From: Gammaproteobacteria bacterium
Lineage (GTDB): Bacteria; Pseudomonadota; Gammaproteobacteria; Burkholderiales; Gallionellaceae
DNA: 64,000 nucleotides
Assembly: GCA_018813765.1 (NCBI GenBank)
Contig: JAHJBC010000006.1
Span: 1 to 64,000 of the forward strand
Reading direction: 5' to 3'
Below, piece after piece: positions 2,830 to 39,279 of the stretch. The notes under the pieces were generated by a model that saw nothing but the letters and a program-made list of their open reading frames with translations, searched no databases and had not been told where the DNA came from. Position 1 is the first letter of the stretch. Every line of letters begins with the position of its first letter. Position numbers and translations under genes: made by a program.

Positions 2830-3126
2830 CTACTTTCGTGATTTCCAGCTTCGGGGATCGCGGCTGCCGTGCATGATCGCCACAACAATCACCGCGTAAG
2901 GATTGACTCTGTAATACACCCCGAAAGGAAACCGGCGCATCAAAGCGCGGCGGGTGTTTCTGTGCATCAGGGGATAGAGTAACGGCGATTCTGCGATAGT
3001 CGACAAACTAGCCAGCGCCTCATCGAGAAACTGGCGGCCCAGTCCGACGCTTTGTTTCTCATACCAGATGGCAGCATCTTCAAGATCAAGTTCGGCCTCC
3101 GGACGGAGGCGAATCTCCAGCGTCAT
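2830..3126 (-). CDS. parE: RelE/ParE family toxin
   Basis: This 98-residue basic protein has the ParE pattern: an N-terminal RLRPEAELDLEDAAIWYE, a central PLLYPLMHRNTRRALMRRFP, and a C-terminal YYRVNPYAVIVVAIMHGSRDP strand pair. Known ParE toxins act on DNA gyrase and RelE toxins cleave mRNA; which applies here cannot be told. It overlaps the 3' end of the antitoxin gene by four bases (ATGA), the usual antitoxin-first arrangement. Likely autoregulated by the complex. Confidence 0.85.
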   Translation of the reverse strand: MTLEIRLRPEAELDLEDAAIWYEKQSVGLGRQFLDEALASLSTIAESPLLYPLMHRNTRRALMRRFPFGVYYRVNPYAVIVVAIMHGSRDPRSWKSRK

Positions 3127-3332
3127 AACTTGCGTTTGATGTCTGCCAATACGTCGGCTAACAGGCGCCCGCTTTTCCCATCTGTCTCGTAGGCGTCCAG
3201 GCGCTGATCGAGCAAGGCCCGCTGTTCGGCGCTCAGGGGCAGCGCCTTCTGGTCGTTGGCAATGCTGTCCCAGATATCCTCGACCATTCTGATCCGCTCT
3301 TCGACCGGGATTTCCTGCAAGGCTATGTTCAT
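3123..3332 (-). CDS. Addiction-module antitoxin (CHP02574 type)
   Basis: A 69-residue acidic protein whose residues IPVEERIRMVEDIWDSIA and LPLSAEQRALLDQRLDAYE match the small unstable-antitoxin family that partners RelE/ParE toxins. It precedes and overlaps the toxin gene. A clear AAAGGTATG lies before the start. Presumed role: binding and neutralising the toxin and repressing the operon. Confidence 0.83.
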   Translation of the reverse strand: MNIALQEIPVEERIRMVEDIWDSIANDQKALPLSAEQRALLDQRLDAYETDGKSGRLLADVLADIKRKL

Positions 3333-3424
3333 GGCATACCTTTCGTGTGATGGCGAACTGCCAGTTTAGCGCAGTCGGTGGAAAACGTGGGATTGGAGGT
3401 TTTGGTTGCGACCTTTATCCTGAA

Positions 3425-4354
3425 TCAGGCCTCCGGCGCCTCGATGCCGTACACCTCGCGCAGGATATCGACGAAGCGCCGCGCCTGCGGCGACAGGAAA
3501 CGGCCCTTGCGCAGCACCAGGCCGTAGCCGCGTTGCGGGAAATATTCGTTGAGCGGGATGCGTGCCAGTTTTTCGTGGCCGGTGAGGCAGATGTCGGTGA
3601 CGATGGAGATGCCCATGCCCAGCTCGACGTATTTCTTGATGACTTCCCATCCGCCCGCCTCCAGGTTCACCATGAAGGTCAGGTTGTGCTGCTGGAACAC
3701 GTATTTCACCATGCGCCAGGTGGAGAGGTGGCGCGGCGGCAGGATCAGGCCGTACTGGCTGATCTCTTCCAGCGTCACGCTGGTCTTCTTGGCCAGCGGG
3801 TGGCCGAGTGGGACGATGAGTACCGGATCGAAGGTTGCCACCGGCTGGTAGGTGATGTCGTCGGGCACGTCCAGCATGGAGCCGACGGCGAAGTCGATCT
3901 CGTCGGCGCGCAGCATCTTGAGGCCGTCGCGTCCGGTGACGTTGTGGATCTTGAGCTGGATGCGCGGATGCGCGGCGACGAAACGGCGCACGGCTTCCGG
4001 CAGGATATACAGGATGGTGGATTCGCCCGCCCCGATGTTGAGTTCGCCGGATTCCAGCCGTCCGTGCTGCGCGGCGAAGTTCTCCTGCAGTCCGTCTATG
4101 CCCTTCACCAGAGGTTCCGCAAGTGCGTACAGGGTTTCTCCATCGGGAGTAAGCTTGAGAACCGGGCCGCGTCGTTCGAACACGGTCACGCCCAATTCGC
4201 GCTCCATCGCCTGGATCTGCAGGGTCACCGAGGGCTGGCTGAGGAACAGTTTCTGCGCCGCCAGGGTGATGCTGCCGGTGCGTACGACCTCGCAAAAGGC
4301 GCGCATCTGCTTGAGTCTGTTGTTTTTGTAGTAGCTTTGCTTGTCTGTCGTCAT
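3425..4354 (-). CDS. LysR-family transcriptional regulator
   Basis: A 309-residue LysR-type regulator. The N-terminal winged helix-turn-helix is visible as GSITLAAQKLFLSQPSVTLQ followed by AMERELGVTVFERRG; the rest is the substrate-binding effector domain. It is divergent from rnfB and separated by about 230 bp, the classic LysR layout, so the Rnf/oxidoreductase/PEP synthase unit is the likely target. The effector cannot be read from sequence. A 15-bp AT-rich dyad close to its start is a candidate operator. CbbR- or CysB-like specificity is possible but not established. Confidence 0.9.
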   Translation of the reverse strand: MTTDKQSYYKNNRLKQMRAFCEVVRTGSITLAAQKLFLSQPSVTLQIQAMERELGVTVFERRGPVLKLTPDGETLYALAEPLVKGIDGLQENFAAQHGRLESGELNIGAGESTILYILPEAVRRFVAAHPRIQLKIHNVTGRDGLKMLRADEIDFAVGSMLDVPDDITYQPVATFDPVLIVPLGHPLAKKTSVTLEEISQYGLILPPRHLSTWRMVKYVFQQHNLTFMVNLEAGGWEVIKKYVELGMGISIVTDICLTGHEKLARIPLNEYFPQRGYGLVLRKGRFLSPQARRFVDILREVYGIEAPEA

Positions 4355-4383
4355 CGTGTTTCCATGGCGTAATGGGCGCCCGG

Positions 4384-4398
4384 TATTAATTATTAATA
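4384..4398. promoter_or_regulatory. Candidate LysR operator in the LysR/rnfB intergenic region
   Basis: TATTAAT-T-ATTAATA is a perfect 7+1+7 dyad and contains the T-N11-A pattern typical of LysR sites. It lies about 30 bp upstream of the regulator start and 190 bp upstream of rnfB. No convincing -35/-10 pair was found in this gap. Confidence 0.4.
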
Positions 4399-4584
4399 GT
4401 CATGATTGAAACAATTGATTCGCGGAATAATTGTAGCTTGTTTAACCTGTGACCAGAAAATAAAAACAGCAGCAATTCAATGGTGTCCTGAATCAAACTT
4501 ACGTCAGGTGGGGCGTAGATAAGTGTAGCGCAGGAGGGCCGGTCTGTCGGTTCTCCGGGCGCATTTATTGCGGCGGGGAGAGGC

Positions 4585-5466
4585 ATGGAAGCGATTTACA
4601 GCATCATCATCACTGGAGCATTCATGGCCGTCCTCGGTGGCCTGCTTGCGCTTGTGCTGGCGATCGCGAGCAAGAAGCTGTATGTCTACGAAGACCCGCG
4701 CATCGAGCAGGTCGAAGAGTTACTCCCCCATTCCAATTGCGGCGCCTGCGGCACAGCGGGCTGCCATAACTTCGCCGAAAAGCTCGTCACGGGCGAGCTC
4801 GAACCTGCGCGTTGCACCGTCAACGCGCCCGATCATAACGTGGAGATCGCCGGATTGCTGGGCGTCGCCCTGGGCGATGTCGAGAAGCGCGTGGCACGGC
4901 TGGCCTGTGCCGGCGGCAAGCATGTCGCCACCATGCGTGCCAAATACGCGGGACTTTCTTCCTGCCGCGCCGCGACGGTTGCGGGCGGCGGCGGCAAGAG
5001 TTGCGCCTGGGGCTGTCTCGGCCTCGGCGACTGCGCCGACGTGTGCGATTTCGACGCCATCACCATGGACGTCCATGGCCTGCCGGTGGTCGATGTCGAC
5101 AAATGCACCGCCTGCGGCGACTGCGTCGATATCTGTCCCAAGGATCTGTTCTCGCTGCATGTGTTGTCGCACAAACTGTGGGTGGCCTGCCGCAACGAGG
5201 ACGACGGCGATGCCGCCGAGGCCGCCTGCGAAGTGGCCTGCACCGCCTGCGAACGTTGCGTGGTCGATGCCGCCCCCGGTCTCATCCATATGGAACGCAA
5301 CCTGGCCGTGATCGATTACGCAAAGAATGAAGCGGCTGTCCGCAAGGCGATAGAACGCTGCCCCACGGGCGCGATCGTCTGGCTCGAAGGCGGCCGCATC
5401 GTCAAGGGAAAAGCCGCTAAGAAAATCATCCGTATCGAACCATTACCCGTCACCAATGAAGTCTAG
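4585..5466 (+). CDS. rnfB: Rnf electron transport complex subunit B
   Basis: This is the iron-sulfur subunit linking ferredoxin to the membrane part of Rnf. The 293-residue protein has an N-terminal membrane helix (about residues 5-28), the four-Cys Fe-S domain signature PHSNCGACGTAGCHNFAEK near residue 50, and ferredoxin-like clusters (CAWGCLGLGDCADVC; CTACGDCVDICPKD). Further cysteines follow (CEVACTACERCVV). It starts behind GGGGAGAGGC. Unusually it is first in the cluster and separated from rnfC by the giant oxidoreductase gene, which it precedes by nine bases. It is longer than the E. coli protein (about 190 residues), as in bacterial RnfB forms with extra clusters. Confidence 0.93.
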   Translation: MEAIYSIIITGAFMAVLGGLLALVLAIASKKLYVYEDPRIEQVEELLPHSNCGACGTAGCHNFAEKLVTGELEPARCTVNAPDHNVEIAGLLGVALGDVEKRVARLACAGGKHVATMRAKYAGLSSCRAATVAGGGGKSCAWGCLGLGDCADVCDFDAITMDVHGLPVVDVDKCTACGDCVDICPKDLFSLHVLSHKLWVACRNEDDGDAAEAACEVACTACERCVVDAAPGLIHMERNLAVIDYAKNEAAVRKAIERCPTGAIVWLEGGRIVKGKAAKKIIRIEPLPVTNEV

Positions 5467-5475
5467 GGAGAAATC

Positions 5476-10391
<4,916 letters not shown>

Positions 10392-10392
<1 letters not shown>

Positions 10393-11852
10393 TGAAAGCC
10401 GAAGTGAAGCTCGACGATCTGCCGCTACAGGACGGGGAAGGACGCAAGCCGTCCGCTGCCCCCGCCCGCAGGGAACGCGCCGCGCATGCGGGGCGACGGT
10501 CCCTGCTGTTCCGGCTCGCCTCGCTGTTCCGCAGCAAGGGCACCTTCGCGCACGGCATCCATCCGGCTTACCACAAGGAGACCGGCAGCCTGCCGATCCG
10601 TCGCCTGCCGTTCGCTTCGCACCTGGTCGTGCCGCTGGCGCAGCATATCGGCAAGCCGGCGCTGTGCTGCGTGAATGTGGGGCAGGAAGTGTCGCGCGGC
10701 GAAGTTATCGCCACGGCGGACGGCCGCATCTCGCTGCCGGTGCATGCACCGGCCACCGGCGTGGTGGAAGCCATCGGGCTGATGCCTGCCGCCAGCGGCA
10801 AGATGGAGGAGTGCATCACCCTCCGCGTGTACCAGGCCGACGGCCAGGAGGTGCGCGTACGCAAGCCGCGCGATGTCGATGCGATGAACCGCCAGGAACT
10901 GCTGGCCGCGATCCAGCACACCGGTCTCTGCGGCTTGGGCGGGGCGACCTTTCCCGCCCACGTCAAACTTGATGTGCCCGCAGAGATGGGGATAGACACG
11001 CTGGTGGTGAACGGCGCGGAATGCGAACCCTTCCTCACCTGCGACCACCGCATCATGGTGGAGCGCACGCAGGACCTCATGCGCGGCATCCGTTACGCGA
11101 TGCGTGCCAGCGGCGCGCCGCGCGCCATCATCGGCATCGAGGACAACAAACCCGACGCCATCGCCGCGATTGCGGCCGCGCTGCCGGACGACGGCAGCAT
11201 CAGCGTGCAGGCGCTGGAGACCAAATACCCGCAGGGCGCGGAAGACACGCTTATCTATGCCCTGCTCGGGCGCGAGATCCCGGCAGGGCAGCGTCCTGCC
11301 GCCGTCGGCGCACTGGTCAACAACGTGATGACGCTGGCCTATCTGGGCCGCCTGCTGCCCGCGGGCGAAGGCCTGGTCGAACGCGTGCTGACCGTGGCAG
11401 GCCCGGCGGTCGAGAGTCCCGGCAACTACATCGTGCCCATCGGCACACCGCTGCGTTTCCTGCTGGAGCAGGTAGGTGCCACGAGCAGCGCGAAAGAGAT
11501 CATCCTCGGCGGGCCGATGATGGGCATGACCGTCTCCTCGCTCGATGTGCCGGTGACCAAGGGCACCTCCGGCGTGCTCGCTTTCGCCGCTGCGGCCACG
11601 GCGGGCGAGGCACCGCGCGTCTATCCCTGCATCGGCTGCGGCGAGTGCGTCAAGGTCTGCCCGCGCTTCCTCAATCCGGCACAGCTCGGCCTGCTGTCGG
11701 GCAAGCGCGAATATGTCGAGATGGCCGCTCAGTTCAACCTCGACCGCTGCTTCGAGTGCGGCTGCTGCAGCTATGTCTGTCCCTCGCACATCCCGCTGGT
11801 GCAGCAGTTCCGCGTCGCCAAGGCATACAACAGGAAGAACCCGGTCACATGA
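10392..11852 (+). CDS. rnfC: Rnf electron transport complex subunit C
   Basis: NADH-facing subunit of Rnf, 486 residues. Its ATG overlaps the oxidoreductase stop (TGATG), so translation is probably coupled. After a basic N-terminal extension of about 55 residues comes the typical HGIHPAYHKETGSLPIR, a biotin-like fold region, the flavin/NADH-binding domain (NGAECEPFLTCDHRIM), and two ferredoxin clusters near the C-terminus (CIGCGECVKVCP; CFECGCCSYVCP). The polar N-terminal extension before the canonical start is longer than in E. coli RsxC. All expected cluster cysteines are present. Confidence 0.92.
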
Positions 11853-12889
11853 GCATGGAACTCCGTACTTCTCCACATTTAGTCAGCGACCGTAGCGTCG
11901 AACGCATCATGAAGCATGTGGTGCTGTCGCTGCTGCCGGTGTGCGCCTTCTCGGTCTGGCAATACGGCCTGTCCGCACTGGCGCTGTTGCTGGCCGTCAC
12001 CGCGACCTGCCTCGCCACCGAGCGCCTGTTCAACCGCGCCGCCGACCAACCCAGCACTCTGGGTGACTGGAGTGCGACCATCACCGGCGTGCTGCTGGCG
12101 CTGACACTGCCGCCCGCCTTTCCGCTGTGGATGGGCGCGGTGGCCGGATTCGTCGCGATAGCGATCGGCAAGGTGCTGTTCGGCGGCCTCGGCTGCAATG
12201 TGTTCAACCCGGCGCTGATCGGCCGCGCCTTCGTGCAGGCCTCTTTCCCGGCCGCCATCACCACCTGGGTGCCTGCGTTCTCGGCGCAGCGTTTCACCGA
12301 ATTCGCGCCGACCACCTTCACTGTACCGCTGATGATCCCGCCCGATGTCGCCGACTGGGTCAAGCAGCAGGCCGTGGATGCATTCACCGGCGCGACGCCG
12401 CTGGCACGCTGGAAATTCGAGAACGTCACCGCTTCGGCCTGGGATTTCCTGAGCGGCGCGGTGACGGCGTCCGCGGGCGAGACCTCGGCCATCCTGATCC
12501 TGGCGGGCGGCATCTATCTCGCCGCGCGCAAGTTCATGGACTGGCGCATCACGGTCGCGGTGCTGGGTTCCGCCGCGCTCACCGCATGGCTGTTCCAGAT
12601 GGTTGACCCGAGTCATTACCCGTCGCCGACCTTCGTGCTGCTGTCCGGCGGCCTGATGCTGGGTGCGGTGTTCATGGCGACCGACATGGCGACCTCGCCG
12701 GTGACGCCGCTGGGCGTGTGGATATACGGCGCGGTGATCGGCGTGGTGACGGTGATGATCCGGTACTTCGGCGGACTCACGGAAGGCGTGATGTACGCCA
12801 TCCTGTTCGCCAATGCGATGGCGCCGCTCATCGACAAATACACCCAGCCGCGCGTGTTCGGCGCGCGGCAGCAAGGGAAGAAACAATGA
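11849..12889 (+). CDS. rnfD: Rnf electron transport complex subunit D
   Basis: Integral membrane subunit (346 residues, about nine hydrophobic helices). The N-terminus RTSPHLVSDRSVERIM is characteristic of RnfD/NqrB. The covalent-flavin site appears as DAFTGATPLA, in which the threonine of the (S/T)GAT motif carries FMN by a phosphoester bond. It forms part of the electron path and probably the ion channel. The start overlaps the rnfC stop by four bases and its stop overlaps rnfG, consistent with one transcript. Confidence 0.93.
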   Translation: MSMELRTSPHLVSDRSVERIMKHVVLSLLPVCAFSVWQYGLSALALLLAVTATCLATERLFNRAADQPSTLGDWSATITGVLLALTLPPAFPLWMGAVAGFVAIAIGKVLFGGLGCNVFNPALIGRAFVQASFPAAITTWVPAFSAQRFTEFAPTTFTVPLMIPPDVADWVKQQAVDAFTGATPLARWKFENVTASAWDFLSGAVTASAGETSAILILAGGIYLAARKFMDWRITVAVLGSAALTAWLFQMVDPSHYPSPTFVLLSGGLMLGAVFMATDMATSPVTPLGVWIYGAVIGVVTVMIRYFGGLTEGVMYAILFANAMAPLIDKYTQPRVFGARQQGKKQ

Positions 12890-13563
12890 ACGAGCCTGTT
12901 CCAGTCCATACCACCCCGAGCGGGAAGATGATCGCCACCATGGTGCTGGTCGCCAGCATCTGCGGCGTGCTCATCGTCGGCGCCTTCGAAGGCACCGCGG
13001 ATGCCATCGCCGAGAACAAGCGCATCCTGCTCGAACGTGCCGTGTTCAAGGTGCTGCCGGGCGCTGCCAGCGTGCGCGAGTACGCCGCGACCGCCACCGG
13101 CGTGCAGATGCTGGCGGCGGGTGCCGCGCTGCCGGAAGGCGGCATCAAATTCTATGCGGCCTACGACAAGGCGGGTGCGCTCAAGGGCATCGCCGCCGAA
13201 GCCGCGGGCAAGGGTTACGCCGATACGGTGCGCGTGCTGTACGGCTACGACGCTGAGCGCCAGGTCATCATCGGCATCGGCCTGGTGTTCTCGCGCGAGA
13301 CGCCCGGCATCGGCGACAAGATCGTCACCGACCAGGCCTTTTTGCAGAATTTCGTGGCGCTGGACGTGCGCCTGAACGAAGAGATGTCCGCGCTGGCCAA
13401 TGCGGTGAAGGTGGTCAAACACGGTACCAAGCAGAATGCCTGGGAGATCGACGCCATCGCCGGGGCCACCATCACTTCCAAAGCGGTCGGACGCGGCATC
13501 AACGAGAGCGCGCAGAAACTGTTGCCGAAACTGGTTCCGCATATCGGAGAATTGAGATCATGA
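12886..13563 (+). CDS. rnfG: Rnf electron transport complex subunit G
   Basis: A 225-residue periplasm-facing flavoprotein anchored by one N-terminal helix (MIATMVLVASICGVLIVG). The FMN attachment motif DAIAGATITSKAVG is near the C-terminus, as in NqrC/RnfG, with alanine where many have serine before GAT. Middle segments GIGLVFSRETPGIGDKI match the family (ETPGLG core). The ATG overlaps the rnfD stop. It passes electrons between the RnfD flavin and the rest of the complex. Confidence 0.92.
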   Translation: MNEPVPVHTTPSGKMIATMVLVASICGVLIVGAFEGTADAIAENKRILLERAVFKVLPGAASVREYAATATGVQMLAAGAALPEGGIKFYAAYDKAGALKGIAAEAAGKGYADTVRVLYGYDAERQVIIGIGLVFSRETPGIGDKIVTDQAFLQNFVALDVRLNEEMSALANAVKVVKHGTKQNAWEIDAIAGATITSKAVGRGINESAQKLLPKLVPHIGELRS

Positions 13564-14204
13564 GCCTGCCGAACAAAAACGACGAGGGCATCACCTTCGA
13601 CACCTTCATGGAAGGCGTGTGGCGCCAGAACCCGGTGTTCGTGATGGTGCTGGGCATGTGCCCGGTCATGGCGGTCACCGTTTCCGCCATCAACGGCATC
13701 TCGATGGGCATCGCCACCACCTTCGTGCTGGTCAGTTCCTGCCTGCTGGTGTCGCTGATCCGCCATCTGGTGCCGAAGGAAGTGCGCATCGCCACCTACA
13801 TCGTGATCATCGCCACCTTTGTGACGCTGGTCGATTATTTCATCCAGGCCCTGAGTCTGGCGCTGTACGAGGCATTGGGCGCCTTCATCCAGCTCATCGT
13901 GGTGAACTGCATCATCCTCGGCCGCGCCGAAGCGCATGCTTCCAAGAACCCGCCGCTCAAGGCGGTGGTCAATGCGCTGGGCATGGGCGTGGGTTTCACC
14001 ATCGGCCTGTTCGCGCTGGGCGGCGTGCGCGAGATCCTCGGCGCGGGCAAGCTGTTCGGCGTCACACTGTTCGGCGACCAGTTCCAGCCCTGGGTGGTGA
14101 TGGTGCTGCCGCCGGGCGGTTTCTTCGTGCTGGGCGGCTGGCTGCTGTTGTTCGCACTGTTCCGCGGCAAACCGGCGACGGAAGGAGGGCACACCCATGG
14201 ATGA
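13560..14204 (+). CDS. rnfE: Rnf electron transport complex subunit E
   Basis: A 214-residue polytopic subunit with about six helices, homologous to NqrD. It shows the family's WRQNPVFVMVLGMCPVMAVT near the N-terminus and VVNCIILGRAEAHASKN in the middle; the conserved cysteines in these half-helices bind an intramembrane Fe-S centre together with RnfA. It ends with a short His tail (GGHTHG). It overlaps rnfG and rnfA, so it is tightly packed in the operon. Confidence 0.93.
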   Translation: MSLPNKNDEGITFDTFMEGVWRQNPVFVMVLGMCPVMAVTVSAINGISMGIATTFVLVSSCLLVSLIRHLVPKEVRIATYIVIIATFVTLVDYFIQALSLALYEALGAFIQLIVVNCIILGRAEAHASKNPPLKAVVNALGMGVGFTIGLFALGGVREILGAGKLFGVTLFGDQFQPWVVMVLPPGGFFVLGGWLLLFALFRGKPATEGGHTHG

Positions 14205-14781
14205 GCCGTTGAGCCTGATCTTCATCAGCACCCTGCTGGCGAACAACTTCGTGCTGGCGATGTTCCTTGGTCTGTGCCCCTTTCTCGGCGTGTCGGGGCG
14301 TTTGAACACTGCCTTCCCGATGGGTCTGGCGACCATGTTCGTGATGCTGGTGGCATCGCTGTGCGCCTATGGATTGAACCTGCTGCTGGACTATTTCCAC
14401 CTCGAGTTCCTGCGCCTGATCTCCTACATCGTGGTGATCGCCTCGTCGGTGCAACTGGTCGAGATGGTGCTGAAAAAATTCAGTCCGGCGCTGTTCCGCG
14501 CGCTGGGGATCTTCCTGCCGTTGATCACCACCAACTGCGCGATCCTGGCGGTGGCGCTGTTCCAGACCGCGCGCGACTACAGTTTCGCCCAGTCGCTGGT
14601 GTTCGCACTCGGCGCCGGCGGTGGCTTCATGCTGGCGCTGGTGCTGATGGCAAGCTTGCGCGAACGCCTGCAACTGGCCAACGTGCCGACGCTGGTGCAG
14701 GGCACCGCCTTGTCGCTGATCCTGGCCGGCCTGCTGTCGCTGACCTTCATGGGCTTCGCCGGCATGGGGAGCCTGGAATGA
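14197..14781 (+). CDS. rnfA: Rnf electron transport complex subunit A
   Basis: A 194-residue polytopic subunit, homologous to NqrE and the partner of RnfE. Visible signatures: FISTLLANNFVLAMFLGLCP and LPLITTNCAILAVALFQ, containing the two conserved cysteines that hold the intramembrane cluster. About six helices. It is the last canonical rnf gene here; no rnfH was seen. Its stop overlaps the start of the following small gene. Confidence 0.93.
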   Translation: MDEPLSLIFISTLLANNFVLAMFLGLCPFLGVSGRLNTAFPMGLATMFVMLVASLCAYGLNLLLDYFHLEFLRLISYIVVIASSVQLVEMVLKKFSPALFRALGIFLPLITTNCAILAVALFQTARDYSFAQSLVFALGAGGGFMLALVLMASLRERLQLANVPTLVQGTALSLILAGLLSLTFMGFAGMGSLE

Positions 14782-14963
14782 TCTATCTGAAGACCGTGCT
14801 GATCGTGTTCGGCCTGCTCGCGGGCTGGCTGGCCGTCCGCGCAGTCGCGCGCTGGTATGCGGCGCGCCATCCCGAGTTCGGCGAGTTGCGCGAAGAGGGA
14901 GAGGGTTGCGGTTGCGGCAACCACAAGTGTGGCACCGACCAGTGCAAGCGCGAGTCGCATTGA
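14778..14963 (+). CDS. Small Cys-rich single-helix membrane protein ending the rnf run
   Basis: A 61-residue protein that starts on the rnfA stop (AATGA overlap). It has one N-terminal helix (LKTVLIVFGLLAGWLAVRAV) and a C-terminal cysteine cluster, GCGCGNHKCGTDQC. The design recalls small Cys-rich assembly factors such as NqrM, which helps Na+-NQR maturation, but the sequence is not NqrM as I know it. A role in delivering iron to the RnfA/RnfE intramembrane cluster is an inference from position and shape. Confidence 0.72.
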   Translation: MIYLKTVLIVFGLLAGWLAVRAVARWYAARHPEFGELREEGEGCGCGNHKCGTDQCKRESH

Positions 14964-14969
14964 GCATTT

Positions 14970-15029
14970 TGTAGGTGCGAATTTATTCGCACAAGCAAAG
15001 GAAAATGTGCGAATAAATTCGCACCTACA
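14970..15029. repeat. REP pair, GTAG-GTGCGAAT family, copy 1
   Basis: GTAGGTGCGAATTTATTCGCAC is followed by its inverted partner after about 14 bases, giving a BIME-like pair. Each unit is GTAG plus a GTGCGAAT/ATTCGCAC hairpin. It separates the Rnf cluster from ppsA and could stabilise or uncouple the upstream mRNA. A second copy lies after erpA. Confidence 0.85.
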
Positions 15030-15063
15030 GTAACAACGCAGTTCAACTTAACAGGAGAAAGTC

Positions 15064-17439
15064 ATGCAAGCGTACGTCATTCCATTCCAGTCTCTGGGGC
15101 TCGCCGACATCCCGGAGGTGGGCGGAAAGAACGCATCGCTGGGCGAGATGATTTCCAACCTGAGTTCGTCCGGCGTCCATGTGCCCGGCGGTTTCGCCAC
15201 CACGGCGCAGGCCTACCGCGATTTTCTCGCGCATGAGGGGCTGGACAAGCGCATCGAACAGGCACTGTCAAAACTGGATGTGGAAGATGTCTCCGCACTG
15301 GCCGAAGCCGGGCGCAAGATTCGCGGCTGGATCGTCGAAGCGCCGCTGCCCAAGCGCCTGGAAGAAGAGATTCGCAGCCATTACGCAAAACTCTCCGCCG
15401 AAGGCGAGGGCAGCTTTGCCGTGCGTTCCTCGGCCACGGCGGAGGATTTGCCGGACGCTTCCTTTGCCGGACAGCAGGAGACCTTCCTCAACATCCACGG
15501 CATCGACAACATCCTGCACGCGATCCGCGAAGTGTTCGCCTCGCTCTACAACGACCGTGCCATCTCCTATCGCGTACACAAGGACTTCACCCACGCCGAT
15601 GTGGCGCTGTCCGCCGGTGTGCAGCGCATGGTGCGCTCCGACCTGGGCGCCTCCGGCGTGATGTTCACGCTCGACACCGAATCCGGTTTCCGCGATGCGG
15701 TGTTCATCACTTCTTCCTGGGGTTTGGGGGAGATGGTGGTGCAGGGCGCGGTGAATCCCGACGAGTTCTACGTGCACAAGCCGCAATTGCAGGCCGGGTT
15801 CCCCGCCGTCATCCGCCGCGCGCTCGGTTCCAAGCAGCAGCGCATGGTGTTCGACGCGCAGCGTTCCGCCGGGCGCTCATGCCGCATCGAGCCAGTACCG
15901 GCCGCTGACCAGCAGCGTTTCTCGCTCAGCGACGAGGATGTGCTGCAACTGGCGCGTTACGCCGTCTCCATCGAGCAGCACTACGGTCGCCCGATGGATA
16001 TCGAGTGGGGCAAGGATGGCATCGACGGCAAGCTCTACATCCTGCAGGCGCGTCCCGAGACGGTTAAATCGAACGCGGGCAGCGGCGGCACGGAGAAATT
16101 CCGCCTGCACCAGCGCGGCACCGTGCTGGTCGAAGGCCGTGCCATCGGGCAGAAGATCGGCAAGGGCCGCGTGCGCATCGTTGAAAGCACTGCCGAGATG
16201 GACAAGGTGCAGGCAGGCGACGTGCTTGTCACCGACATGACCGACCCGAACTGGGAGCCGGTGATGAAAAAAGCTTCCGCCATTGTCACCAACCGCGGCG
16301 GCCGCACCTGCCACGCCGCCATCATCGCACGCGAGTTGGGCATCCCCGCCATCGTCGGCTGCGGCGATGCCACCAGCGCGTTGCAGGACGGCGAGACCGT
16401 CACCGCTTCCTGCGCCGAGGGTGATACCGGTTATGTCTATCACGGCGATCTGCCGTTCGAGGTGGCGGTGCACAGCGAGGAAGAACTGCCACCCATCCCG
16501 GTCAAACTCATGCTCAACGTGGGCAATCCCACGCTGGCCTTCGAGTTCGCGCAACTGCCGTCGGCGGGCGTCGGCCTGGCGCGGCTGGAATTCATCATCA
16601 ACAACCTGATCGGCATCCACCCGCGCGCAGTGCTGGAGCACGACAAGCTGCCGAAGACATTGCATGAAGCCGTGCTGCAACGCGCCGCCGGTTATGCCAG
16701 TCCGGAAGCGTTTTACGTCGAGAAGATCACCGAAGGCGTGTCCACGCTGGCGGCCGCGTTCTGGCCCAAGCCGGTGATCGTGCGCATGTCCGACTTCAAG
16801 TCGAACGAGTACCGCAAGCTGCTGGGCGGCGACATCTACGAGCCGCTGGAAGAGAACCCGATGATCGGTTTCCGCGGTGCGGGTCGTTATGTCGCGGCGA
16901 ACTTCAGCGAATGTTTCGAGCTGGAATGCCGCGCCATGAAGCGCGTGCGCGAGCAGCTCGGTTACACCAATGTCGAGCTGATGATCCCCTTCGTGCGCAC
17001 CGTGAAAGAAGCGCAGGAAGTCGTCGCCACGCTGGCGAAGCACGGCCTCAAGCGCGGCGAGAATGGCCTGCGCCTCATCATGATGTGCGAGATCCCATCC
17101 AACGCGCTGCTTGCGGAAGAGTTCCTGCAACACTTCGACGGCTTCTCCATCGGCTCCAACGACCTGACGCAACTGACATTGGGACTGGACCGCGATTCCA
17201 GCCTTGTGGCGGACCGTTTCGACGAGCGCGATGCGGCGGTGAAGTCCTTGCTGAAGATGGCGATCACCACCTGCAACCGTTTGAACAAATATGTCGGCAT
17301 CTGCGGACAGGGTCCTTCCGACCACTTTGATTTCGCCGAGTGGCTGGTCGAGACCGGGATTCAGACCATGTCGCTGAACCCCGACACGGTTGTAGAAACA
17401 TGGCGCAAGCTGGCCAATAAAGGAATTGCCGGGAAGTAA
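15064..17439 (+). CDS. ppsA: Phosphoenolpyruvate synthase
   Basis: Converts pyruvate + ATP + water to PEP + AMP + Pi. 791 residues, the normal length. Order: N-terminal ATP-grasp domain ([20 protein letters not shown]), the swivelling phosphohistidine domain ([17 protein letters not shown], catalytic His), and the C-terminal PEP-binding barrel ([28 protein letters not shown] with the catalytic Cys). It starts behind AACAGGAGAAAG. It follows the Rnf/oxidoreductase genes by about 100 bp containing only a REP pair, so joint expression is likely. In that setting it would drain pyruvate made by reductive carboxylation into gluconeogenesis. Confidence 0.96.
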
Positions 17440-17537: not shown

Positions 17538-17585
17538 GCCCCTCCCCCATCCCACTCTCCCCTTTTGGGGGGAGGGGTCTTTTTT
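17538..17585 (+). terminator. Terminator after ppsA
   Basis: CCCCTCCCC pairs with GGGGAGGGG and is followed by TCTTTTTTG. The inner bases are themselves a G/C-block palindrome of the repeat type seen elsewhere in the window. Confidence 0.65.
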
Positions 17586-23983: not shown

Positions 23984-25852
23984 ATGCATCAAGCACTACT
24001 CCCCAAGAGCCGCATAACCGAACGGGTTATTCCCGCGCTGAAGGAATTGCGTGCCGAGGCGATCGCCCTGGAACGTGAGTTCGAAAACGAGATCGATCAT
24101 GTCCCTCCCGGATACCGGGCGAGCGCGGGCAATCTGCTTCATTATCTGGCACTGCGGCAGAGCGATATTCGCGCTCTGCAGCAGGATCTCGCGCTGTTGG
24201 GGCTCAGCCGGTTGGGCAGGTCGGAGGCGCATGCCTTGAGCAGCATCGATGCCGTGCTGGAGGCGGCTTGCGCACTGGCCGGACTGTCGCGCGCAACCAG
24301 GGACCGGCCGAACTCGGTCGACATCAAGACCGGCGAAACCTATTTGAACGAACATGCAAGGAAGCTGCTGGGTGAGCCGTGTCAGAAACATGGCACGCGC
24401 ATCATGGTGACCATGCCCGGCGAGGCGGCACATGATGCCGGCCTGGTGCGTGATCTGGTGGAAGCCGGAATGAACGTCATGCGGATCAATTGTGCGCACG
24501 ATGATGCCCAGGCATGGCTGGCGATGATAGGCCACTTGCGTGCGGCGGAACGCGAGTCGAACAGGAGATGCAAGGTGCTGGCGGATATGGCGGGGCCGAA
24601 ACTGCGGACCGGCAGCATCCGCGCTGTCGACCGACTAATCGAGATCAAGGTCAAGCGCGATTTCCGCGGGAACATCAATGAGCCGACTGCGGTATGGCTG
24701 ACACCGCGCGAAGATTCGCAGACGCCCGCGTTCCCGGTGAAAGCGACATTGCCCACTGACAGGGAGGTACTCGCGGCGGCACAGGAGGGCGACAAGCTTA
24801 TCGCGGAGGACTCCCGCGGCGTGACCCGCGTCCTGACACTGGCGACGCGCAATGGCGATTCCTGGCTGGCGCATTGCCATCAGCACGCCTATATCGCGGA
24901 GGGGGCGTGGTGCGGTCTTTATCGCAACGACGAGATGATCGCGCAGGATCGCATTTCGCCCATTCCCGAGGTGTTCCAACCCATCCTGCTGCATGTCGGT
25001 GATGAACTGCGGGTCACCCGCAGTACCGAGTTGGGCTCGCCTGCGGTATTCAAGGGCGGGCAACTACTGCACCCGGCATCTATCCCCTGCACGCTCGACG
25101 AGGTGTTCGAATCGGCACAGGCGGGGCAGCCGATCTGGTTCGATGACGGCAAGATAGGCGGGACTATCCGTGCCAACGAAGGCGACCATCTCCGGGTGGA
25201 GATCACCCAGGCATCGCCGCAAGGCAGCAAACTCGCGCCGGAGAAGGGCATCAATCTGCCGCAGACGGATATGGACATTCCCGCGCTGACGAAATGCGAT
25301 ATCACCAACCTGACAGTGCTGGCACCGCATATCGATCTGGTGGGTCTCTCGTTCGTGCGCAGTTCGCAGGATGTAACGGCACTGCATCAGCTGCTGGATG
25401 CGCGTGGGCACCATCATCTAGGCACGATACTCAAGATTGAGACCGCACAGGCGTTCGAAGATCTGCCGATGATTCTGCTGACGAGTATGCGCCGCCCGCC
25501 GGTCGGCGTAATGGTGGCGCGCGGCGATCTCGCGGTAGAAGTGGGTTTCGAAAGATTGGCCGAGGTTCAGGAAGAGATACTCTGGATGTGTGAAGCGGCC
25601 CACATCCCGGTCATCTGGGCGACACAGGTACTGGAGAGCATGGCCAAGAGCGGCATGCCATCACGCGCCGAAGTCTCCGATGCCGCGCTGTCGATACGCG
25701 CCGAATGCGTCATGCTCAACAAGGGGCCGTACATTGTAGAAACGCTGCGCTTTCTTGGCGGAGTGCTTGATCGGATGAGCGGCCATCAGGTCAAGCGTCG
25801 TCCGACGATGCGGCGCTTGTCCATATCGCAGTTGCCGAACCGGGAGCAATGA
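23984..25852 (+). CDS. Pyruvate-kinase-like protein with long N-terminal extension
   Basis: A 622-residue protein of the pyruvate kinase barrel family. After an all-helical N-terminal region of about 140 residues come AGMNVMRINCAHD, AGPKLRTGS, WFDDGKIGG, LVGLSFVRSSQDV, GTILKIE, VMVARGDLAVEVGFE and IWATQVLESM, so the substrate, metal and catalytic-Lys segments look kept. The segment before FDDGK is about 80 residues longer than the usual B domain, MLNKGPYI replaces the usual MLSGETA, and the C-terminal allosteric domain is absent. Probably a distinct subfamily; activity is uncertain. No good ribosome site precedes the start. Confidence 0.82.
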   Translation: MHQALLPKSRITERVIPALKELRAEAIALEREFENEIDHVPPGYRASAGNLLHYLALRQSDIRALQQDLALLGLSRLGRSEAHALSSIDAVLEAACALAGLSRATRDRPNSVDIKTGETYLNEHARKLLGEPCQKHGTRIMVTMPGEAAHDAGLVRDLVEAGMNVMRINCAHDDAQAWLAMIGHLRAAERESNRRCKVLADMAGPKLRTGSIRAVDRLIEIKVKRDFRGNINEPTAVWLTPREDSQTPAFPVKATLPTDREVLAAAQEGDKLIAEDSRGVTRVLTLATRNGDSWLAHCHQHAYIAEGAWCGLYRNDEMIAQDRISPIPEVFQPILLHVGDELRVTRSTELGSPAVFKGGQLLHPASIPCTLDEVFESAQAGQPIWFDDGKIGGTIRANEGDHLRVEITQASPQGSKLAPEKGINLPQTDMDIPALTKCDITNLTVLAPHIDLVGLSFVRSSQDVTALHQLLDARGHHHLGTILKIETAQAFEDLPMILLTSMRRPPVGVMVARGDLAVEVGFERLAEVQEEILWMCEAAHIPVIWATQVLESMAKSGMPSRAEVSDAALSIRAECVMLNKGPYIVETLRFLGGVLDRMSGHQVKRRPTMRRLSISQLPNREQ

Positions 25853-39221: not shown

Positions 39222-39279
39222 TGTAGGTGCGATTTATTCGCACTGATACGGGCTATGTGCGAATAAATTCGCACCTACA
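39222..39279. repeat. REP pair, GTAG-GTGCGAAT family, copy 2
   Basis: TGTAGGTGCGATTTATTCGCAC then GTGCGAATAAATTCGCACCTACA, the same pair as before ppsA. It lies between convergent erpA and anmK. Confidence 0.85.

What the first reader, a model, noticed from the sequence alone, without database searches (positions are those of the whole stretch)
4585..17439. Rnf complex wrapped around a pyruvate:ferredoxin oxidoreductase and followed by PEP synthase
Seen: rnfB, oxidoreductase, rnfC, D, G, E, A and a Cys-rich small gene are packed with overlaps, and ppsA follows after 100 bp. Splitting rnfB from rnfC with the oxidoreductase gene is unusual and implies joint function. Known: Rnf exchanges electrons between NADH and ferredoxin using ion-motive force; the oxidoreductase can carboxylate acetyl-CoA when ferredoxin is reduced; PEP synthase makes the step effectively one-way. 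Inference: a dedicated machine for driving pyruvate synthesis (acetate or acetyl-CoA assimilation, or CO2 fixation) by reverse electron flow, possibly in an oxygen-respiring lithotroph. The opposite direction, catabolic pyruvate oxidation with energy recovery, is also possible.
Basis: partly seen in the sequence, partly recalled or inferred. Interest (0 to 1): 0.72.

Follow-up and report, generated by a model that had tools for sequence, protein, structure and literature searches.

The report
Pyruvate enzyme wired to ion pump
A Gallionellaceae-type bacterium carries a pyruvate-splitting (or pyruvate-making) enzyme, with its own ferredoxin attached by a flexible tether, inside the genes of an ion-pumping membrane complex; the same unit recurs in many other bacteria and may let respiring microbes drive a hard carbon reaction with their membrane voltage.

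Summary
Confirmed at the stated coordinates: rnfB - PFOR - rnfC-D-G-E-A - a small Cys-rich gene, with ppsA 100 bp on; a divergent LysR gene (3425-4354) precedes it. The host is Gallionellaceae-type, with RuBisCO. The order is no local oddity: in the best 80 of 569 matching stretches from a scan of 84,980 species' genomes, rnfB lies directly upstream in 78 of 79 testable loci and rnfC directly downstream in 68 of 68. The unit also sits on large plasmids of Persicobacter (Bacteroidota) and Gemmatirosa (Gemmatimonadota). I read it as PFOR hard-wired to Rnf: an ion-coupled, reversible pyruvate/acetyl-CoA:NAD(H) oxidoreductase. Direction is open. Synthesis is favoured here by ppsA, a PDH elsewhere, no isocitrate lyase found and an rTCA-like gene set; the oxidative reading, in print for the Solemya velum symbiont, stands. 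Two further Rnf clusters, one near nifH, make nitrogenase supply an unlikely main role. New variant of a known kind.

The parts
3425..4354 (-). divergent LysR-type regulator, 309 aa, upstream of rnfB
   Evidence: LysR_substrate 2.6e-45, HTH_1 6.1e-21; 90% identical to the one in L034; a LysR cluster on the minus strand upstream of the unit in 28 of the 80 loci (one member scanned besides the window's)
4585..5466 (+). rnfB, 293 aa, long polyferredoxin type; 20 conserved Cys, enough for five [4Fe-4S] clusters (inferred)
   Evidence: NF005504 1.2e-68, below its cut-off; TIGR01944 68.5 of 68.7; 9eri_B 7.6e-55; 8ahx_B 2.5e-11; each of the 20 Cys in 82 or 83 of 83
5476..10392 (+). PFOR-type 2-oxoacid oxidoreductase with fused C-terminal ferredoxin, 1638 aa
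10078..10140 (+). flexible linker (PFOR residues 1535-1555)
   Evidence: pLDDT < 50 at model residues 836-856; pLDDT < 50 at 38-55 of the C-terminal model, residues 1537-1554; residues 1521-1560 are the least conserved block, 0.49
10141..10389 (+). tethered single-cluster ferredoxin domain (residues 1556-1638; C1567, C1570, C1573, C1609)
10392..11852 (+). rnfC, 486 aa
   Evidence: TIGR01945 473 bits, cut-off 246
11849..12889 (+). rnfD, 346 aa
   Evidence: TIGR01946 311 bits, cut-off 207
12886..13563 (+). rnfG, 225 aa, FMN-binding domain
   Evidence: PF04205; TIGR01947 80.9 bits, below the 102 cut-off
13560..14204 (+). rnfE, 214 aa
   Evidence: TIGR01948 226 bits, cut-off 213
14197..14781 (+). 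rnfA, 194 aa
   Evidence: TIGR01943 241 bits, cut-off 229
14778..14963 (+). 61-aa protein, hydrophobic N-terminal stretch and Cys-rich tail; no Pfam or NCBIfam match; found after rnfA in many loci
   Evidence: no family; tblastn match within 500 bp after rnfA in 42 of 61 testable loci, 48 of 61 if a motif search is added
14970..15029 (+). long hairpin with perfect 23-base arms (REP-like; the arm recurs at 39257-39279) between the rnf unit and ppsA
   Evidence: z = -7.5
15064..17439 (+). ppsA, phosphoenolpyruvate synthase, 791 aa
   Evidence: TIGR01418 1161 bits, cut-off 740
17555..17577 (+). terminator-like stem with T tail after ppsA
   Evidence: 10 such sites in the region against 10.5 in shuffles, so weak

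Best explanation
The genes encode one electron-transfer unit: a PFOR whose ferredoxin is covalently tethered, serving the RnfB polyferredoxin of a dedicated Rnf complex. Together they act as an ion-coupled, reversible pyruvate/acetyl-CoA:NAD(H) oxidoreductase. SHOWN (sequence and models): gene order, fusion, linker, conserved Cys, co-conservation. INFERRED: electrons run TPP - three PFOR [4Fe-4S] clusters - tethered cluster - RnfB clusters - membrane subunits - RnfC FMN - NAD(H), while H+ or Na+ crosses the membrane. INFERRED, weaker: in this host the net flow is towards pyruvate (NADH plus membrane potential drive acetyl-CoA + CO2 to pyruvate, drawn off to PEP by PEP synthase), with the oxidative, energy-conserving direction available when NADH or membrane potential is low. 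With recalled potentials (about -0.50 V for pyruvate/acetyl-CoA+CO2, -0.32 V for NAD) the uphill step costs about 31-39 kJ per 2 e-, near what two ions (an assumed number) pay at 0.15-0.20 V, 29-39 kJ, so the unit would sit near equilibrium.
Against: No biochemical data; no contact of the tethered ferredoxin with RnfB was modelled. The PFOR is below the curated PFOR equivalog cut-off (428 against 911), so pyruvate as substrate is inferred. The genome also has an ordinary-size PFOR (1217 aa, L114) and an OGOR-like enzyme, so soluble routes exist. ppsA is not linked in 35 of 56 loci, isocitrate lyase is present in 31 of 50 other carriers and the ATP-citrate-lyase domain in only 1 of those 50; the C10 gene set of this genome also has a citrate synthase; so the synthetic reading does not generalise simply. 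Carriers without a RuBisCO match exist (5 of 77; 2 of 14).
Confidence: 0.62

Rival explanations
1. Oxidative reading: the unit oxidises pyruvate to acetyl-CoA and CO2 and Rnf turns the extra energy into NADH plus an ion gradient, an energy-saving alternative to PDH for anoxic or micro-oxic periods or for using stored carbon.
For: Proposed by the Solemya velum symbiont authors for the same gene order (PMC4287430, passages); ferredoxin to NAD is a known direction of Rnf (start of the abstract of PMC7414866 in the listings); 5 of 77 carriers examined have no whole or fragmented aceE (G066, G107-G110), where PFOR might replace PDH.
Against: 72 of 77 carriers have aceE, whole or in pieces. A PEP synthase beside it points away from catabolism, although PEP synthase can in principle run backwards.
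Confidence: 0.4
2. Nitrogen-fixation support: the unit makes reduced ferredoxin for nitrogenase from pyruvate and/or NADH.
For: nifH co-occurs in the genus (24 both, 3 fused PFOR only, 1 nifH only, 6 neither; G001 counted as nifH-positive on two pieces) and in the order sample (8 of 14 carriers against 31 of 236 others, Fisher p 0.0003), an odds ratio as high as that of RuBisCO.
Against: Only 19 of 50 other carriers have nifH over cut-off. The genome has a separate rnfABCDGE cluster 18 kb from nifH. The 14 order-sample carriers fall in 4 families, so the counts are not independent.
Confidence: 0.1
3. Co-regulated but not physically coupled: the tethered ferredoxin is a buffer and electrons pass by the diffusible ferredoxin pool to any Rnf.
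For: Rnf and PFOR are linked by soluble ferredoxin in fermenters (recalled); two other rnf clusters in the genome could use the same pool.
Against: Ferredoxin fusion in 82 of 82 complete copies, with rnfB and/or rnfC beside the PFOR in each of the 80 named loci and in the 4 further relatives.
Confidence: 0.25

Closest known systems
Rnf complexes with long RnfB (PDB 9eri and 7zc6; recalled as Acetobacterium woodii and Clostridium tetanomorphum)
   Same: six subunits; long polyferredoxin RnfB (7.6e-55 and 9.4e-48)
   Different: here a PFOR with its own ferredoxin is encoded between rnfB and rnfC; those use soluble ferredoxin (recalled)
rnf2 cluster of the Solemya velum symbiont (PMC4287430, passages read)
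   Different: in the passages read the authors mention neither a fused ferredoxin, nor ppsA, nor wide conservation; they propose pyruvate as electron donor
Homodimeric PFOR of Moorella thermoacetica and Desulfovibrio africanus (PDB 6cin, 1b0p)
   Same: domain order, TPP motifs, cluster Cys, fold of the catalytic half
   Different: distant (ordinary PFORs are about 26-30% identical over the matched part); two insertions of about 95 and 108 residues (gaps) and a tethered ferredoxin; D. africanus ferredoxin I, the best fold match to that domain, is a separate protein there (recalled)
Pyruvate:NADP+ oxidoreductase of Euglena and Cryptosporidium (recalled; one search found no paper)
   Same: PFOR with its electron acceptor fused to the C-terminus
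   Different: a diflavin reductase instead of a ferredoxin; no ion pump
Rnf1 of Azotobacter vinelandii (PMC12174285 passages)
   Same: Rnf run in reverse to make reduced ferredoxin in a respiring bacterium
   Different: serves nitrogenase; no PFOR in the passages seen; its RnfB (8ahx, organism recalled) is short and a weak match (2.5e-11)

Membership tests
Rnf complex (RnfABCDGE) | all six subunits encoded together | tested here: met
   C, D, E, A over curated cut-offs; G (80.9 of 102) and B (68.5 of 68.7) below TIGR cut-offs but matched by Pfam FMN_bind and by solved RnfB
Rnf complex (RnfABCDGE) | ferredoxin:NAD oxidoreductase activity coupled to H+ or Na+ | not testable with these tools
   needs biochemistry
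Pyruvate:ferredoxin oxidoreductase (homodimeric, NifJ type) | POR_N, PFOR_II, POR, Fe-S and TPP domains in one chain with the Cys of three clusters | tested here: met
Pyruvate:ferredoxin oxidoreductase (homodimeric, NifJ type) | score over the curated equivalog cut-off TIGR02176 | tested here: not met
   428 against 911 bits; hence filed as a divergent PFOR-like member of the superfamily, not as the NifJ equivalog
Pyruvate:ferredoxin oxidoreductase (homodimeric, NifJ type) | pyruvate as substrate | tested here: inconclusive
   YPITPS and an Arg aligned with Moorella PFOR; residue roles recalled
Single-cluster ferredoxin (C-terminal domain) | CxxCxxC...C ligand set and ferredoxin fold | tested here: met
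PEP synthase | over the TIGR01418 cut-off | tested here: met
   1161 against 740 bits
Nitrogenase-linked Rnf | linked to nif genes, or always with nifH | tested here: not met
   19 of 50 carriers with nifH over cut-off; another rnf cluster is the one near nifH
NqrM-type maturation factor (small Cys-rich gene) | match to a known Pfam family | tested here: not met
   no Pfam family at E <= 0.1 (that NqrM is in Pfam is recalled)

The most novel reading that the evidence does not exclude
The fused PFOR is a true extra subunit of this Rnf: an ion-translocating pyruvate:NAD+ oxidoreductase in which the usual diffusible ferredoxin is replaced by a tethered one. Keeping the low-potential electrons on a leash would allow PFOR chemistry, including membrane-potential-driven pyruvate synthesis, in bacteria that respire oxygen or nitrate or run light-driven chains.
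Probability: 0.45. Interest if true: 0.8.

Novelty: new variant of a known kind. Interest (0 to 1): 0.6.

Why it matters
If right, it is a carbon-carbon bond reaction coupled to an ion pump through a tether, and a candidate answer to how respiring and phototrophic autotrophs pay for ferredoxin-level carboxylation. The tether makes the idea directly testable (remove the ferredoxin domain; co-purify). It may give a function to one of the Rnf complexes that the Gallionellaceae pangenome paper calls of unknown function in these iron oxidisers (PMC10734462, passages), and it shows that counting PFOR and Rnf genes alone does not tell the direction of flow.

Tried and rejected
Nitrogenase support was tested and demoted, not excluded. 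PDH replacement was tested and rejected for most carriers (only the homodimeric aceE type was searched, not E1 alpha/beta). Strict dependence on the Calvin cycle: RuBisCO is enriched (12 of 14 carriers against 99 of 236 others in the order sample, Fisher p 0.0016; 46 of 50 other carriers), but the 14 fall in 4 families, exceptions exist, and the background includes weaker matches (about 1e-44 to 1e-70) that may be RuBisCO-like proteins, so I do not claim it. The rTCA link: ATP-citrate-lyase domain in 7 of 80 genomes, so at most a local partner. A known identity for the small Cys-rich protein: no match. A named type for the divergent LysR regulator: NCBIfam gave only LysR models below their cut-offs for the one member scanned. 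Co-inheritance by Mantel correlation (r 0.77-0.94) is expected from shared descent and was not used. My first script for the small gene read wrong frames in at least 3 loci; one search replaces its count. My ORF pick missed the LysR gene of the window at first; found. In the Foldseek search of the long model the ferredoxin match was weak (rank 41, E 0.17) and gave no range, and the second look ended at model residue 813; the domain was therefore folded alone (best Foldseek E there 0.015). Literature searches that gave no further report of the fused ferredoxin or of the wide conservation: (listings; passages of seven papers read); subscription papers are mostly not held.
Full report
What is there. 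The window is bases 1-64000 of contig C12 of a 3.14 Mb, 99.8% complete genome. The closest named loci (PFOR about 77-91% identical in the first rows) bear titles such as Gallionellaceae, Gallionella, Sideroxydans and Sideroxyarcus, so I call the host Gallionellaceae-type. From rnfB to the small Cys-rich gene they are one tight string (9-bp gap, then overlaps of 1-8 bp). ppsA follows after 100 bp that hold a long hairpin whose arm recurs once elsewhere in the window, so co-transcription of ppsA is open. A terminator-like stem follows ppsA, but such sites are no commoner than in shuffles. A divergent LysR regulator (3425-4354) precedes rnfB.

How general it is. A scan of one genome for each of 84,980 species gave 569 stretches that encode a relative; the best 80 were fetched. 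rnfB is directly upstream in 78 of 79 testable loci; in the exception, Rhodoblastus (L093), rnfB is at the other end of the cluster. For rnfC my script's distance rule passed 50 of 68 testable loci; the 18 others, printed in the same output, all have an rnfC match starting between -141 and +36 bp of the PFOR end, so I count 68 of 68. Two more distant order-level relatives (57-58% identical) and two plasmid hits, Persicobacter (59%) and Gemmatirosa (51%), have the PFOR, the ferredoxin domain and rnfC-D-G-E-A beside it; in Persicobacter rnfB is again at the far end. Among the 15 of 32 plasmid records listed there is a clear gap between these two and ordinary PFORs (26-28%). ppsA lies within 2.5 kb after rnfA in 21 of 56 testable loci, in Gallionellaceae-type and gammaproteobacterial records. 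Within the flanks, clusters of mechanically called ORFs, one member of each scanned, show a LysR regulator (28 loci), a PpsR-type PEP synthase regulator (12), an FNR-like protein (12) and ApbE (4). The small gene follows rnfA in 42 of 61 testable loci by tblastn, 48 of 61 with a motif search added.

Genome context. In the genus, 22 of 27 genomes with the fused PFOR have three rnfC matches, 4 have two and 1 has one; the 7 without it have one each, but only one of the 7 is at least 90% complete. In this genome one other rnf cluster lies 18 kb from nifH and one is a plain rnfABCDGE cluster on C12. The genome also has an ordinary-size PFOR of 1217 aa and, on contig C10, OGOR-like, Hdr-like, transhydrogenase, ATP-citrate-lyase/citryl-CoA-synthetase-like, aconitase, isocitrate dehydrogenase and citrate synthase genes, an rTCA-like set besides RuBisCO.

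Which way it runs. 80 genomes were searched, 77 of them carriers. aceE: over cut-off in 70 of 80, in pieces in 5 more, none in 5; 72 of 77 carriers. RuBisCO: 73 of 80, 72 of 77 carriers. Isocitrate lyase: 0 of 30 in the genus, 31 of 50 elsewhere. ATP-citrate-lyase domain: 7 of 80. nifH over cut-off: 19 of the 50 carriers outside the genus. Order sample of 250: RuBisCO 12 of 14 carriers against 99 of 236, nifH 8 of 14 against 31 of 236; the carriers come from four families, so neither figure is independent evidence, and nifH is as enriched as RuBisCO. These fit an autotroph that already has PDH and uses this second enzyme mainly the other way, most of all where ppsA and ATP-citrate lyase are present; they do not exclude oxidative use. 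Energetics from recalled potentials put the reaction near balance, which is why I call it reversible.

Literature (passages only, except where listings are named). PMC4287430 already describes PFOR between rnfB2 and rnfC2 and suggests pyruvate as donor. PMC10734462 finds Rnf in iron-oxidising Gallionella and Sideroxydans, absent in Nitrotoga, function unknown. PMC6593406 argues for PFOR carboxylating acetyl-CoA during storage-polymer use in sulfur-oxidising symbionts. PMC11636981 describes rTCA genes clustered with Hdr-Flx, pntAB and Rnf in Endoriftia. PMC4914600 names PFOR and ppsA as a possible CO2-fixing continuation after ATP-citrate lyase in Thiomargarita and discusses Rnf separately. PMC12174285 and PMC9012536 do not mention this unit in the passages seen. 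I found no report of the tethered ferredoxin in the searches named under Tried and rejected.

Verdict. Real, widespread, partly known as a gene order, with a fused ferredoxin that I found nowhere reported in what I could search and that turns a gene-neighbourhood guess into a concrete wiring hypothesis. Coupling is likely; direction is undecided, with a lean to synthesis in this host.

Noticed in passing
G000 contig C10: L120, L115, L119 (for example L119:1449-2729 and 2839-5541): An rTCA-like gene set (OGOR-like enzyme, Hdr-like proteins, ATP-citrate-lyase/citryl-CoA-synthetase-like pair, aconitase, monomeric IDH, pntB, part of PPDK, citrate synthase) in a Gallionellaceae-type genome that also has RuBisCO; the citrate-binding domain is in 6 of 30 genus genomes. 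One search found no paper under the terms tried. It resembles the dual-pathway set described for Endoriftia.
   Followed up: partly
14778-14963: A 61-aa protein with a hydrophobic start and a Cys-rich tail after rnfA in many carriers; no known family. A role in making or anchoring the Rnf iron-sulfur clusters is a guess.
   Followed up: partly
14970-15029 and 39257-39279: REP-like palindromic element; three exact copies of its 23-base arm in the window.
   Followed up: partly
23984-25852: A 622-aa protein with a pyruvate-kinase barrel domain only, a few kb from ppsA; an ORF cluster of similar length (622-623 aa) is in 3 fetched loci (L036, L044, L045), not compared with it directly.
   Followed up: no
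L104:7044-7685: Adenylate kinase gene upstream of the unit; its ORF cluster is in 6 loci, several titled Thiodiazotropha. PEP synthase makes AMP, so the neighbour may matter.
   Followed up: no
G000 C9:164000-174410 (L114): An ordinary-size 1217-aa PFOR in the same genome, so two different PFORs coexist.
   Followed up: partly
L123, L124: The unit sits on plasmids of about 1.07 and 1.11 Mb in Persicobacter and Gemmatirosa, which suggests horizontal transfer.
   Followed up: partly
L121, L122 (G217, G312): Two order-level carriers, 57-58% identical, have the unit but no RuBisCO match in the same sample.
   Followed up: partly
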